Both the position numbers and the translations under genes were made by a program. The notes under the pieces were generated by a model, which was given only the letters and a program-made list of their open reading frames with translations, had not been told where the DNA came from and made no database searches. Shown piece by piece: positions 19,311 through 23,396 of a stretch of 64,000 nt of DNA (positions are counted from its first letter, which is position 1; each line of letters starts with the position of its first letter). The DNA lies in the NCBI RefSeq assembly GCF_005490785.1, contig NZ_CP027295.1, positions 2,480,001 to 2,544,000 on the forward strand. Direction: 5' to 3'. This stretch comes from Brachybacterium sp. SGAir0954 (GTDB lineage Bacteria > Actinomycetota > Actinomycetes > Actinomycetales > Dermabacteraceae).

Positions 19311-20426
19311 TCAGGCGTCGGCCACCGTCCAGCCGCGCTCGGTGAGCGATCTCGTGAGCAGGTTCTCGGCGCGGACGTCCACGGCGATGTGCGCGAGGCC
19401 CACCGGCTGCCCGAGCGTGTGCTCGAGACGGAGGTCCTCGAGGTTCACGCCGATCTCGCCCATCTCGGTCAGCAGGCGGCCCAGCTCGCCCGGGCTGTCC
19501 GGGACGAGCACGACGACCGTCGCGAAGGAGTCGGTGGCCCCGCCGTGCTTGCCGGGGATGCGCCGCACCCCGCGGTTGCCGTCGGCGACGAGGTCCGCGA
19601 TCGCGCGCCGGGACCCGAGCTCCGGGCGCGGATCGCCCTCGAGGGTGCCGAGCGCCGCGATGACGTCGTCGAGCCGCTCGCGCAGCCCCTGCAGCACACC
19701 GCCCACGGCGGCCGCGTTCGCGCCGAGGATCTCGACCCAGAGCCGGGCGTCGGAGTCCGCGATGCGGGTCGTGTCCCGCAGTCCCTGGCCGGCGAGGCCG
19801 AGGGCCTGCTCCGTCGGCTCGAGCAGGCTCGTCGCGAGCAGGCTCGAGAGCACCTGCGGCACGTGGGAGACGTGGGCGACCGCGTCGTCGTGCGCCGCGG
19901 CGTCCATGACCACCGGCACGGCGCCGATCTCCGTCGCGAGGCCCCGGAGCACGCTCGCGGCGCCATCGCGGGTCGCGGGGTGCGGGACCACGACGAAGGG
20001 CCGGCCCTGGAAGAGGTCGCTGCGCGAGGAGATGACGCCGGAGACCTCGCGGCCCGCCATCGGGTGGGCGCCGATGTAGCGCGGGAGGTCGGCGGGGGCG
20101 GCGAGGGCGCGCACGCCCTCGAGCACGGTGCCCTTGACGCTCGCGACGTCGGTCACGAGCGCCTCGGGGAAGCGGGCGAGGGCGTCGGCGACGAGCGTCG
20201 CGGCGACGTCGGGCGGCGCGGCGACGACGACGAGCCGCGGTTCGGGACCGCCCTCGACGGGCCGCTCCCCCACGCCGAGCTCGACGGCCAGGGCCGTGGT
20301 CCCCGGGGAGACGTCCTCGACCTGGACCCGGGCGCCCGCGCGGCCCAGCGCGAGGCCCAGGGAGCCGCCGATCAGCCCGGTCCCGATGATCCGCACCGGG
20401 GAGGGCACGAGCGCGTCGGCGCTCAC
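19311..20426 (-). CDS. tyrA: Prephenate dehydrogenase
   Basis: A 371-residue enzyme of tyrosine synthesis that oxidatively decarboxylates prephenate to 4-hydroxyphenylpyruvate. The N-terminal Rossmann motif is IGTGLIGGSLGLAL. The region around YIGAHPMAGREVSG holds the conserved substrate-binding histidine. The C-terminal 80 residues (ATVVVLVPDSPGELGRLL and onward) form an ACT domain, so tyrosine feedback is likely. The start is the GTG at 20426, which overlaps the rluB stop by 4 nt. The order rluB-tyrA-cmk is common in actinobacteria. Confidence 0.93.
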   Translation of the reverse strand: MSADALVPSPVRIIGTGLIGGSLGLALGRAGARVQVEDVSPGTTALAVELGVGERPVEGGPEPRLVVVAAPPDVAATLVADALARFPEALVTDVASVKGTVLEGVRALAAPADLPRYIGAHPMAGREVSGVISSRSDLFQGRPFVVVPHPATRDGAASVLRGLATEIGAVPVVMDAAAHDDAVAHVSHVPQVLSSLLATSLLEPTEQALGLAGQGLRDTTRIADSDARLWVEILGANAAAVGGVLQGLRERLDDVIAALGTLEGDPRPELGSRRAIADLVADGNRGVRRIPGKHGGATDSFATVVVLVPDSPGELGRLLTEMGEIGVNLEDLRLEHTLGQPVGLAHIAVDVRAENLLTRSLTERGWTVADA

Positions 20427-21379
20427 AGCCCCAGCTCCGCCATGAGCGTGCCGAGCTCGCGGCCCGTCAGCTCGCGGGTCGCGCCGGGGGCGAGGTCGCC
20501 CAGCAGGACCGGCCCGATCCGCGTGCGCATGAGGCCGGTCAGCTCGAAGCCCTGGGAGGCGAACATGCGGCGGACGATCCGGTTGCGGCCCTCGTGCAGG
20601 CTCACCTCGACGACGGCCTCGCGGCCGTCCTGGGCGAGCACCCGGGCGCGGTCGGCGCGCGCGGGGCCGTCCTCGAGCTCGACGCCGTCGCGCAGGGCCT
20701 TGACGAGACCGCGGGGCGGGCCGCCGGGCGCGTCGAAGCGGCACACGTACGTCTTCTCCACAGCGAAGGAGGGATGGGTCAGGCGGTGCGCGAGCTCACC
20801 GTCGTTCGTGAGCAGCAGCAGGCCCTCGGTCTCGTAGTCGAGGCGACCCACGTGGTAGAGCCGCTGGTCGTAGCGCTCGGTGAACTCCGTGAGATCGCGG
20901 CGACCCTCAGGATCGTGCATCGCGGAGACCACGTGCCGCGGCTTGTTGAGGACCACGGTGAGCTTCTTCTCGTCCAGCTGCAGCCGGCGCCCGTCCACGT
21001 GCACCGCCTGCGTGGCGGCATCGATCCGCAGGCCCTGCTCGGTGACGATCTCGCCGTCCACGCTCACGCGCCCCTGGGCGATGAGCGCCTCGCAGGCGCG
21101 GCGCGAGCCGAAGCCGGCGCGGGCGAGCACCTTCTGGAGGCGCTCGCCACCCTCCTGGTGATGGTCTCCCGGCTCGGATCCCGCGGCGGCGGGCGTCGTC
21201 CCCTTCCGGCCCTCGTCGTCACGCAGCGTGACCGTGCGCGGCGGGGTGAACGCGCTGCGTCGGCGCTGCCGCGACGTCCCGGTGCGCGCCCCGCGGTGAC
21301 CGCCCCGGCGTCCCCGTCCCTCGCCGGAGGCGTCCTTCCGGCCGTCGCCGCCGGCGCCCTGGCCCCGCGGGCCGGCCAT
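20423..21379 (-). CDS. rluB: 23S rRNA pseudouridine synthase of the RluB/RsuA family
   Basis: A 318-residue enzyme that isomerises uridine in rRNA. Residues 1 to about 75 are a disordered Gly/Arg-rich extension. An S4 RNA-binding domain follows (ERLQKVLARAGFGSRRACEA). The catalytic domain has the active-site Asp in GRLDYETEGLLLLTNDG and the C-terminal EVSLHEGRNRIVRRMF motif. The ATG at 21379 shares its first base with the TGA of parA (TGATG), a 1-nt overlap. In most actinobacteria scpA and scpB stand between parA and rluB; they are absent here. Confidence 0.92.
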   Translation of the reverse strand: MAGPRGQGAGGDGRKDASGEGRGRRGGHRGARTGTSRQRRRSAFTPPRTVTLRDDEGRKGTTPAAAGSEPGDHHQEGGERLQKVLARAGFGSRRACEALIAQGRVSVDGEIVTEQGLRIDAATQAVHVDGRRLQLDEKKLTVVLNKPRHVVSAMHDPEGRRDLTEFTERYDQRLYHVGRLDYETEGLLLLTNDGELAHRLTHPSFAVEKTYVCRFDAPGGPPRGLVKALRDGVELEDGPARADRARVLAQDGREAVVEVSLHEGRNRIVRRMFASQGFELTGLMRTRIGPVLLGDLAPGATRELTGRELGTLMAELGL

Positions 21380-22245
21380 CAGGCCGCGCCGCCGCGCGAG
21401 ATCAGCTCGCGGGCCAGCTGGCGGTAGGCGTCCGCGCCCTTGTTCGACGAGGCGAAGGAGATGATCGGCTCCGCCGCGACGGAGGCGTCGGGGAACTTCA
21501 CCGTGCGGTTGATCGTCGTGTGGAAGACCTTGTCCGGGAAGGCCTGCACGACGCGCTGGCACACCTCGCGGGCGTGCAGCGTGCGCGGGTCGAACATCGT
21601 GATGAGGATCCCGTCGATCTCGAGGCGCGGGTTGATGCGGTCCTGCACCTTCTCGATCGTCTCGACGAGCAGGGCCACGCCGCGCAGGGCGAAGTACTCC
21701 GCCTCGAGCGGGATCACCACGCCGTGGCTCGCTGCGAGGGCGTTGACGGTGAGCAGGCCCAGCGACGGCTGGCAGTCGATGATGATGACGTCGTAGTCGT
21801 CCGCGACGGGCCGCAGCACGCGGGCGAGCGCCATCTCACGGGCGACCTCGTTGACGAGCTGGACCTCCGCCGCGGAGAGGTCGATGTTCGCGGGCAGCAC
21901 GTCGAGGTTCTCGGTGCCGGTCTCCTGGATCACGTCGCGCACGTCGTGCTTGCGGTCCATGAGCAGGTTGTAGACCGTGACGTCGAGCTCGTAGGGGTTC
22001 ACCCCGGTGCCGGCGCTCAGCGCGCCCTGCGGGTCGAGGTCCACGAGCAGCACCTTGCGGCCGATCTCCGCGAGGGCCGCGCCGAGGTTGATGACGGAGG
22101 TCGTCTTCCCGACCCCGCCCTTCTGGTTGACCATCGAGATGATCCGCGCCGGTCCGTGCCCGTCGAGGGGCGCGGGCTCCGGCAGCTCGGGCATCGGCCG
22201 TCCCGTGGGGCCGAGGTCGATGTCCAGCTGCTGGTTCGCGTTCAC
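21379..22245 (-). CDS. Soj-like ParA ATPase of the xerD-parA-rluB cluster
   Basis: A 288-residue ParA ATPase with P-loop NQKGGVGKTTSVINLG at about residues 40-55, VLLVDLDPQGALSAGTGVNP and VIIIDCQPSLGLLTVNAL. This is the chromosomal cluster copy found between xerD and scpA in actinobacteria, thought to act in chromosome organisation. The GTG at 22245 is chosen, with AGGA 7 nt upstream; longer forms extend into Pro/Arg-rich sequence without family similarity. The stop overlaps the rluB start by 1 nt. Upstream, 167 nt separate it from xerD, with no other gene seen. Confidence 0.9.
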   Translation of the reverse strand: MNANQQLDIDLGPTGRPMPELPEPAPLDGHGPARIISMVNQKGGVGKTTSVINLGAALAEIGRKVLLVDLDPQGALSAGTGVNPYELDVTVYNLLMDRKHDVRDVIQETGTENLDVLPANIDLSAAEVQLVNEVAREMALARVLRPVADDYDVIIIDCQPSLGLLTVNALAASHGVVIPLEAEYFALRGVALLVETIEKVQDRINPRLEIDGILITMFDPRTLHAREVCQRVVQAFPDKVFHTTINRTVKFPDASVAAEPIISFASSNKGADAYRQLARELISRGGAA

Positions 22246-22412: not shown

Positions 22413-23396
22413 CTAAGCCCCCGCTCCGGACCGCGGATGGGCGCTCGCGTGGATCTCGCGCAGCGAGTCCACGGTCACCTGCGTGTAGAGCTGGGTCGTG
22501 GTGACCGAGGCGTGCCCGAGCAGCTCCTGCACGCTGCGGACGTCCGCCCCGCCCTGGAGCAGGTGCGTCGCGTACGAATGGCGCAGCGTGTGCGGGCTCA
22601 CCGCCTCGGCGAGACCGGCGTCCTCCGCGGCGCGCCGCACCACCTGCCAGGCGGCCTGCCGCGTGAGCCGCGTCCCCCGCGAGCCCAGGAAGATCGCCGG
22701 GGTGCCGGGGCCGCGAGCGGCGAGGGCGGGCCGGGCACGGGTCAGGTAGGCGTCGAGGGCGTCGAGGGCGAAGGAGCCGACGGGCACCGTGCGCTGCTTG
22801 TCGCCCTTGCCGTGCAGCAGTGCCGCCCGCTGCTCACGGTCCACGTCGTCCACGTCCAGTCCGATCGCCTCAGAGATCCGGGCGCCGAGGCCGTAGAGCA
22901 CCTCGAGCAGGGCCCGGTCGCGCAGCGCGCGCTCTGCGGGGAGCGCGCCGGTGCCGGGCCGGCCCGCGGCCTCGATGAGCTCGAGCACCTGGTCCACGGG
23001 CAGCGGGTGCGGCAGCCGCGAGGGCAGCGCAGGGCCGGGCACGAGCCGGGTCGGGTCCCCGGTCTCCGATGCGCGCTCGGCGTCGAGGAAGGCGTGGAGA
23101 CCGCGGACGGCGGCGAGGGCGCGGGCGGCGGAGGCGGCGGCGAGGGGGGCGCCGCCGTCCTCCCCGGTGCGCAGCGCGCGCACCCAGGCGGCGGCGTCCT
23201 CCGTGCTGACCGCGGCGGCCTCGGTGCCGGTGCGGTCCAGGTGACCGAGGTAGCGCAGCAGGTCCCGCCGGTAGGCGGCGAGGGTGTTCTCGGAGAGTCC
23301 GCGCTCGATGCGCAGGTGGCTCAGGTACTGCTCGAGCAGGCGGCGGTGGGCCGGGCGCAGGTCGTCCGCGTCCGGTATCACCGCCGGCCCGCTCAC
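22413..23396 (-). CDS. xerD: Site-specific tyrosine recombinase XerD
   Basis: A 327-residue recombinase that resolves chromosome dimers at dif together with XerC. Residues about 14-110 are the SAM-like core-binding domain ([20 protein letters not shown]). The catalytic domain shows the conserved Arg in [11 protein letters not shown], Lys in [13 protein letters not shown], His-x-x-Arg in [14 protein letters not shown], His in [13 protein letters not shown] and the nucleophile Tyr in the same stretch. The start GTG overlaps the ctaB stop by 4 nt, so the two are co-translated. Its place before parA is the usual actinobacterial order for xerD rather than xerC. Confidence 0.93.

What the first reader, a model, noticed from the sequence alone, without database searches (positions are those of the whole stretch)
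21370..21390. scpA/scpB missing: parA and rluB overlap by one base
Seen: the parA stop and rluB start share a base (TGATG), with no scpA or scpB. Known: the usual actinobacterial order is xerD-parA-scpA-scpB-rluB, and ScpA/ScpB are the kleisin partners of SMC. Inference: a clean deletion that fused the operon, possibly tied to loss of SMC-ScpAB condensin or its replacement by another condensin.
Basis: partly seen in the sequence, partly recalled or inferred. Interest (0 to 1): 0.55.

Follow-up and report, generated by a model that had tools for sequence, protein, structure and literature searches.

The report
Family that swapped its chromosome condensin
The two missing genes are the visible scar of a bacterial family having lost the standard SMC-ScpAB chromosome-organising machine, while its members keep a nuclease-free relative of an anti-plasmid defence motor, which probably took over the job.

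Summary
The junction is real: the parA stop (TGA, 21381-21379) and the rluB start (ATG, 21379-21377) share base 21379, with no scpA or scpB. It is an old event. parA-rluB without scpAB occurs in 29 of 29 Dermabacteraceae-group loci (Brachybacterium, Dermabacter, Helcobacillus and kin); scpA follows parA in 51 of 51 other loci. The genome has no ScpA, ScpB or SMC hit; SMC_N hits over the cut-off are RecF and RecN. Across the family a real SMC hinge is found in 1 of 47 genomes, the outlier "Micrococcales bacterium 31B". MksF/JetA, MksE/JetB and MksB/JetC are found in 47 of 47. The 46 SMC-less genomes each have a set without the Wadjet nuclease JetD beside it; 12 of these MksB were placed in trees and form one clade. 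Gene order and strand are kept in 36 of 36 genomes with all three on one contig, although the former operon spans 5.5-82 kb. ParA-ParB-parS is intact at oriC. Best reading: SMC-ScpAB was lost in the family ancestor and a JetD-free, Wadjet-type MksBEF is the only condensin. The loss is shown; the replacement is inferred. Against it: one genome (G303) has mksF interrupted by an IS-like element.

The parts
21377..21381 (-). TGATG junction: parA stop TGA and rluB start ATG share base 21379; the place where scpA-scpB stand in other genera
   Evidence: scpA found in 51 of 51 other loci (query from one of them) and in 0 of 29 Dermabacteraceae-group loci
21379..22245 (-). parA-like ATPase gene of the xerD-parA-scpAB-rluB cluster (288 aa; not the oriC ParA)
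   Evidence: Pfam AAA_31 1.2e-62; an oriC-proximal ParA is a separate gene
20423..21379 (-). rluB, 23S rRNA pseudouridine synthase (318 aa)
   Evidence: S4 + PseudoU_synth_2, TIGR00093 over its cut-off
22413..23396 (-). xerD-type tyrosine recombinase, upstream gene of the cluster
   Evidence: Phage_integrase 1.4e-42, SAM-like N domain; the name xerD is by context

Best explanation
The ancestor of Dermabacteraceae (without the outlier 31B) lost the Smc-ScpAB condensin altogether. scpA and scpB were deleted from the xerD-parA-scpA-scpB-rluB cluster, leaving parA and rluB intact and overlapping, and smc disappeared too. The chromosome is now handled by MksF-MksE-MksB (kleisin, KITE, SMC-like ATPase; JetA-JetB-JetC in Wadjet naming), which descends from a type I Wadjet-like system and has no JetD nuclease. 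Without JetD the motor can work on the chromosome without cutting it, and it is conserved as a housekeeping set whose operon has fallen apart into separate genes. Shown: the absences, the presence in every genome searched, the missing JetD, the intact ATPase motifs, the common clade of the rows tested and the dispersal. Inferred: that MksFEB organises and segregates the chromosome, and that it derives from a JetD-bearing defence system.
For: Own genome: ScpA 0, ScpB 0. Of 20 SMC_N hits the two over the cut-off are RecF and RecN. The one SMC_hinge hit is a LacI regulator. Family: a real SMC hinge in 1 of 47 genomes, G318 = 31B, which has a full 1211-aa SMC next to ftsY and scpA after parA. ScpA in 0 of the 23 family members in the order draw, against 254 of 274 others. 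MksB/JetC 47 of 47, MksE/JetB 47 of 47, MksF/JetA 47 of 47; JetB in 101 of 274 other genomes of the order, 99 over the cut-off. JetD in 8 of 47: five belong to a second compact JetABCD in Brachybacterium, one to the only Jet locus of 31B, one is an orphan about 1.4 Mb from mks (G306), one a 63-residue fragment (G244). None lies beside a core mksB; the nearest is 30 kb away, in G188 (coordinates). In 9 core loci read downstream of mksB there is no JetD. Core MksB (12 genomes) is one clade with 100% support in two trees, among mostly JetD-bearing relatives. All 12 rows keep GGPGTGKS, LSGGQ and IIIDEAF. Core MksB is 83-92% identical within the genus (15 pairs), against 55-100%, mean 65%, for the second JetC (10 pairs). 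Order F-E-B and strand kept in 36 of 36. ParB and four parS-like sites at oriC.
Against: No functional data. In one of the 46 SMC-less genomes (G303) the core mksF is interrupted near residue 342 of 509 by about 2.6 kb holding a 520-aa IS-like frame, so the set is not visibly intact everywhere; that genome also has a second JetABC. In G308 core mksB and mksE have frame breaks, perhaps sequencing errors. In C. glutamicum MksBEFG does not fold the chromosome and acts on plasmids (PMC7083940, passages), and actinobacteria can tolerate smc deletion (PMC11898615, passages). In the same order 16 of 274 other genomes lack both ScpA and the SMC hinge and only 4 of the 16 have JetB, so loss need not be matched by Mks. 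JetD-less JetABC is also seen in 24 of 58 loci outside the family, 23 of them in genomes with ScpA, so losing JetD alone does not make a sole condensin. Descent from a JetD-bearing ancestor rests on a long stem (1.0-1.2), moderate support for the exact sister (87, 96) and an unknown root.
Confidence: 0.65

Rival explanations
1. SMC-ScpAB was lost and nothing replaced it. ParABS and FtsK suffice, and MksFEB is kept for another role, such as holding down plasmids without cutting them or with a different nuclease.
For: smc is dispensable in C. glutamicum, where FtsK compensates (PMC11898615 passages). Mks in C. glutamicum acts on plasmids (PMC7083940, PMC10123090 passages). Other ScpA- and hinge-negative genomes of the order mostly lack JetB (12 of 16). 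G303 carries an interrupted core mksF.
Against: JetB is in 101 of 274 other genomes and the second JetABCD in only 5 of 46 SMC-less Dermabacteraceae, while a JetD-free set is in 46 of 46 and its MksB is well conserved. Its operon is dispersed, which is unusual for a mobile defence island (general knowledge).
Confidence: 0.26
2. MksFEB is still a complete Wadjet defence system whose JetD lies elsewhere in the genome.
For: JetD is found in 8 of 47 genomes.
Against: No JetD_C hit in the window's own genome or in 39 of 47 genomes. In the five Brachybacterium genomes with a Jet-associated JetD it sits with the second system, whose JetC is 30-34% identical to the core. The profile detects JetD in C. 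glutamicum (control).
Confidence: 0.04
3. scpA, scpB and smc moved elsewhere in the genome.
Against: Profile searches of the single-contig 3.41-Mb genome find none; the same absence holds for ScpA in 23 of 23 family genomes searched and for the hinge in 46 of 47 (discounting the LacI hit).
Confidence: 0.02
4. The junction is an assembly error.
For: None found.
Against: 29 of 29 Dermabacteraceae-group records show parA followed directly by rluB.
Confidence: 0.01

Closest known systems
MksBEF condensin (Pseudomonas aeruginosa type)
   Same: Kleisin MksF, KITE MksE and SMC-like MksB without a nuclease; in P. aeruginosa MksBEF contributes to chromosome layout and segregation (PMC7485682, PMC10586767, passages).
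   Different: In P. aeruginosa it coexists with SMC-ScpAB; here no SMC-ScpAB is found. The Dermabacteraceae proteins score as JetA/JetB/JetC type I and in most genera their genes are dispersed rather than in one operon.
Wadjet type I / MksBEFG / EptABCD plasmid defence
   Same: JetA, JetB and JetC homologues (JetC PDLC00518 1165 bits; PDB JetC 8dk2 E 2e-78; JetA 8dk1 E 6e-23 over its first two thirds; JetB weak, E 8e-4).
   Different: No JetD with it; in every family genome searched rather than patchy; operon dispersed; separate clade from the JetABCD systems carried by 5 Brachybacterium genomes.
Smc-ScpAB condensin
   Same: The machine that normally fills this role in the order (ScpA in 254 of 274 non-family genomes).
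   Different: Absent here.
Bifidobacterium longum with only a distant MksBEF homologue
   Same: A Hi-C study lists B. longum among species with a distant MksBEF homologue and not among the seven (all Firmicutes) with a clear Smc-ScpAB (PMC10197239, passages): possibly a second actinobacterial case of the same kind.
   Different: One strain, noted in passing there. If family code f4 is Bifidobacteriaceae (a guess), at least two of its SMC-less genomes with a Jet locus keep a full-size JetD (L267, L268).

Membership tests
Smc-ScpAB condensin | smc, scpA and scpB present | tested here: not met
MukBEF/MksBEF condensin superfamily | MukB-like ATPase with AAA_29 P-loop and SbcC_Walker_B halves, intact Walker A, signature and Walker B | tested here: met
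   Pfam AAA_29 1.8e-22 and SbcC_Walker_B 1.6e-21; motifs in 12 of 12 core rows
MukBEF/MksBEF condensin superfamily | KITE subunit MksE and kleisin MksF present | tested here: met
   MksE PF21980 32.5 bits over cut-off 27 and DUF4194 143 bits; DUF3375 444.9 bits; 47 of 47 genomes, mksF interrupted in G303
MukBEF/MksBEF condensin superfamily | acts on the chromosome | not testable with these tools
   needs deletion, imaging or Hi-C
Wadjet type I (JetABCD) defence system | JetA, JetB, JetC homologues | tested here: met
   PADLOC JetC1 1165 bits, JetA1 496 bits, JetB1 193 bits
Wadjet type I (JetABCD) defence system | JetD nuclease in the same operon | tested here: not met
   JetD_C absent from G000 and from 39 of 47 genomes; where present in SMC-less genomes it is not beside a core mksB
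Wadjet type I (JetABCD) defence system | compact four-gene operon | tested here: not met
   compact F-E-B only in genus g96 and without JetD; 17.5 kb span in G000, median 27 kb in 28 g1 genomes
Wadjet type I (JetABCD) defence system | JetB N-terminal motif that contacts JetD | tested here: inconclusive
   The LW/LF-x-GD-x-G stretch common in other JetB is not seen in core MksE, but is also missing from several JetD-bearing systems

The most novel reading that the evidence does not exclude
A defence machine became the chromosome's only condensin. An ancestral actinobacterium carried SMC-ScpAB plus a Wadjet, lost the JetD nuclease and then SMC-ScpAB, and its descendants (Brachybacterium, Dermabacter, Helcobacillus and kin) run a ParABS chromosome on a Wadjet-derived motor alone. 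It would be a natural, clade-wide instance of the proposed route from plasmid defence to chromosome segregation, with an SMC-plus-Wadjet relative (31B) still at hand.
Probability: 0.46. Interest if true: 0.75.

Novelty: new variant of a known kind. Interest (0 to 1): 0.62.

Why it matters
In C. glutamicum, the actinobacterium where Mks was tested in the papers I saw, the complex works on plasmids, not the chromosome. A review proposes, without a worked case in the passages I read, that MksBEF arose from JetABCD by losing JetD (PMC10586767). A culturable family in which that complex is found in every genome searched, nuclease-free and without SMC-ScpAB makes the idea directly testable. It also allows asking what ParB-parS does when its usual client, SMC, is gone. 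The listings showed no paper reporting SMC loss in Brachybacterium or Dermabacteraceae (open-licence PMC library only). A 2013 survey whose genome list includes B. faecium says Smc, ScpA and ScpB are present in nearly all actinobacteria (PMC4255298, passages).

Tried and rejected
Relocation of scpAB/smc and assembly error: rejected. The weak SMC_hinge hit in G000 (22.5 bits) is a LacI-family regulator. Of the 18 SMC_N hits below the cut-off one was checked, a 1216-aa open frame that is an ABC transporter. The larger SbcC_Walker_B frame (L031) is SbcC. A first scan of RecF and RecN on the wrong strand gave nothing and was repeated on the right strand; the RecN stretch scanned scores 400 bits against a model cut-off of 408.

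JetB N-terminal motif as a marker of JetD binding: inconclusive. ScpB was searched only in the window's own genome. ScpA was searched in 23 of 47 family genomes.

Trees: FastTree on 76 rows. Of 17 further core loci (L045-L061) 3 were left out as duplicates, 3 were added, and 11 were not used because the script took the longest forward frame. So 12 of 46 SMC-less genomes have their core MksB in the tree. IQ-TREE quick on 56 of those 76 rows; 20 rows (near-duplicates, long branches such as 31B, most f4 rows) were dropped beforehand. The PADLOC JetC score does not separate core from second JetC (both about 1140-1222 bits where whole); the second sets were told apart by JetD, place and direct comparison. 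Absence of JetD in the 24 of 58 non-family loci holds only for the stretches fetched, a few kb past JetC.

Counts of genomes lacking both ScpA and hinge (16 of 274) were made by hand from the handles listed as positive, since negatives are only partly listed. The dispersal table uses 36 of 46 SMC-less genomes; in the other 10 the genes lie on different contigs or are cut by contig ends. It includes G303 (interrupted mksF) and G308 (frame breaks).

Full report
Observation. On the minus strand the parA gene (22245-21379) ends TGA and rluB (21379-20423) begins ATG with one shared base, TGATG at 21381-21377. Upstream is an xerD-type recombinase. Neither scpA nor scpB lies between them, and a tblastn with ScpA finds none in the 64-kb window. 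The window is G000:C1:2480001-2544000 of a single-contig 3.41-Mb genome.

The junction in relatives. A search for the window's ParA in named genomes gave 80 loci. The first 29 are Brachybacterium, Dermabacter, Helcobacillus, unnamed Dermabacteraceae and one 'Actinomycetales bacterium' MAG that groups with them by ParA identity. In all 29 the RluB core starts 81-192 bases after the parA stop; 21 have TGATG and one TAATG. In the other 51, scpA is found in 51 of 51, one of them (31B) being the source of the query. Of 50 loci other than 31B, the RluB core lies 1.7-3.7 kb beyond parA in 45 and is not found in 5. L152 (Micrococcales bacterium 31B) has scpA after parA (Pfam ScpA 147.5 bits) but no rluB within 6 kb. 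L152 is identical to a stretch of G318, which the genome tool places in the same family (f1, genus g95). So the deletion is shared by the family members seen, except this outlier.

Loss of SMC-ScpAB. In the window's genome ScpA gives 0 hits and ScpB 0. Of 20 SMC_N hits two are over the cut-off, and these are RecF and RecN; one of the 18 weaker ones was checked and is an ABC transporter. In 297 genomes of the order ScpA is found in 254, none of them among the 23 of family f1 (family membership). The SMC hinge is found in 2 of 47 family genomes: a real one in 31B, which has a 1211-aa SMC (TIGR02168 900 bits against a cut-off of 567) beside ftsY, and a false one in G000 that is a LacI regulator.

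What is there instead. The SbcC_Walker_B profile finds two proteins in the genome. One is SbcC. The other, 1132 aa (G000:C1:1280732-1284130, L032:2733-6131), is a MukB-like ATPase of the JetC/MksB family: PADLOC JetC1 1165 bits, and JetC in the PDB (8dk2, E 2e-78). MksE/JetB (G000:C1:1273601-1274320; DUF4194 143 bits, MksE 32.5 bits) and MksF/JetA (G000:C1:1266511-1268040; DUF3375 445 bits) lie upstream on the same strand. In the family the three are found in 47 of 47 genomes each. Outside the family JetB is in 101 of 274 genomes of the order, 99 of them over the cut-off.

No nuclease. JetD_C is absent from the window's genome and present in 8 of 47. In five Brachybacterium genomes (G090, G188, G303, G304, G308) it sits with a second, compact JetABC whose JetC is 30-34% identical to the core one. 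In 31B it sits in the only Jet locus. In G306 it is an orphan about 1.4 Mb from the mks genes (L275) and in G244 a 63-residue fragment. By coordinates none is beside a core mksB; the closest is 30 kb off in G188, where the second system lies inside the spread-out core cluster. Nine core loci were read downstream of mksB and show no JetD. In the genus with a compact core operon (g96, L105 and L106) the next frame opens within a few bases of the mksB stop; in L105 it is a CshA-repeat surface protein, so there is no room for a JetD remnant.

A dispersed operon. MksF, MksE and MksB keep order and strand in 36 of 36 SMC-less genomes where all three are on one contig. The span is 5.5 kb in g96, 7.6-22.8 kb in g2, g3 and g4, and 9.8-81.5 kb (median 27 kb) in the 28 genomes of genus g1 in the table. 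In G000 it is 17.5 kb, with other genes between (from the translations, by recall, among them a transporter, a regulator and siderophore-uptake genes). Genus g1 is Brachybacterium, by contig-length matches of G188 and G308 to named records and by ParA identity of the window. Step-by-step break-up of an operon fits a long-resident, vertically inherited gene set; this is inference.

Phylogeny and constraint. Core MksB forms one clade with 100% support in two trees (12 and 6 rows), separate from the second JetC clade of the same family. It sits among mostly JetD-bearing systems: the sister group is 10 of 12 with JetD (support 87) and 12 of 15 (support 96). The stem is long (1.0-1.2 changes per site) and the root is unknown, so descent from a JetD-bearing system is likely, not proven. 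All 12 core rows keep Walker A, signature and Walker B motifs; identity within the genus is 83-92% (15 pairs), against 55-100%, mean 65%, for the second JetC (10 pairs).

ParABS. Near dnaA and recF the genome has an oriC ParA, a ParB (ParB_N, HTH_ParB and ParB_C domains) and four parS-like sites with at most two mismatches within 1.1 kb (consensus recalled). So the usual SMC-loading platform persists without SMC.

Results against the replacement idea. In G303 the core mksF is interrupted near residue 342 of 509: the two parts (84% identical to G000 each) lie about 2.6 kb apart with a 520-aa frame between them. The start of that frame reads the same as one between JetC and JetD of the second system in the same genome (L114) and resembles an IS21-type transposase (recall). 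Whether G303 lives with a broken core set, leans on its second JetABC, or the insertion is not fixed, is open. In G308 core mksB changes frame at residue 335 and mksE is split; JetD is split too and the assembly is rated 85% complete, so sequencing error is likely. In the order draw 16 of 274 other genomes lack both ScpA and the SMC hinge, and only 4 of them have JetB, so SMC can go without Mks stepping in, although some of these may be incomplete genomes or diverged genes. JetD-less JetABC occurs in 24 of 58 non-family loci, 23 of them in genomes with ScpA. In C. glutamicum Mks does not fold the chromosome (PMC7083940, passages) and smc is dispensable (PMC11898615, passages). A Hi-C study lists B. 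longum with a distant MksBEF homologue and not among those with a clear Smc-ScpAB (PMC10197239, passages), so this may not be the first actinobacterium of the kind.

Interpretation. The loss of SMC-ScpAB is established for this genome and very likely ancestral to the family. The nuclease-free MksFEB, present in every family genome searched and well conserved, is the best candidate for the sole condensin (confidence 0.65). [quoted passage not shown] This family is a concrete, testable case. I saw no report of it in the listings.

Noticed in passing
L280:462-2351 (+), G000 oriC region: ParB has its domains starting near residue 360 of a 629-aa frame that begins with a RGLGRGLGALIP-type N-terminus, i.e. 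an unusually long linker before the ParB_N domain ('unusual' by recall).
   Followed up: no
G037, G096, G124, G278 (family code f4, genus g23) and 12 other non-family handles: 16 of 274 non-family genomes lack both ScpA and SMC hinge; four have a JetABC locus (L266-L269), at least two of these with full-size JetD (L267, L268; L269 has only a short JetD frame). Possibly independent SMC losses; f4 may be Bifidobacteriaceae (guess).
   Followed up: partly
L283:2465-4027 and L114:2920-4482 (G303): A 520-aa IS-like frame (same start in both; IS21-type by recall) interrupts the core mksF and also sits between JetC and JetD of the second system of the same genome.
   Followed up: partly
L117 and L284 (G308): JetD of the second system and the core mksB are each split over two frames; with 85% completeness this looks like sequencing error in that assembly.
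   Followed up: partly
G188:C1:2861649-2868364: The second, JetD-bearing Jet system lies between the dispersed core mksB and mksE genes of the same chromosome.
   Followed up: no
L275:9206-9928 (-): G306 carries a JetD piece with no JetABC in the 16 kb fetched around it, a likely relic of a lost Wadjet.
   Followed up: partly
L105, L109 (confirmed by Pfam): A CshA-repeat surface protein gene lies downstream of core mksB in g96 and g2; g4 and g3 have a large open frame at or near that place that was not scanned.
   Followed up: partly
L175: A contig labelled Vibrio cholerae strain 35D carries an Arthrobacter-like parA-scpA region (75% ParA identity to the window), so that record is probably mislabelled or contaminated.
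   Followed up: no
L152: 31B keeps scpA after parA, but neither rluB nor an evident scpB follows within 6 kb.
   Followed up: partly
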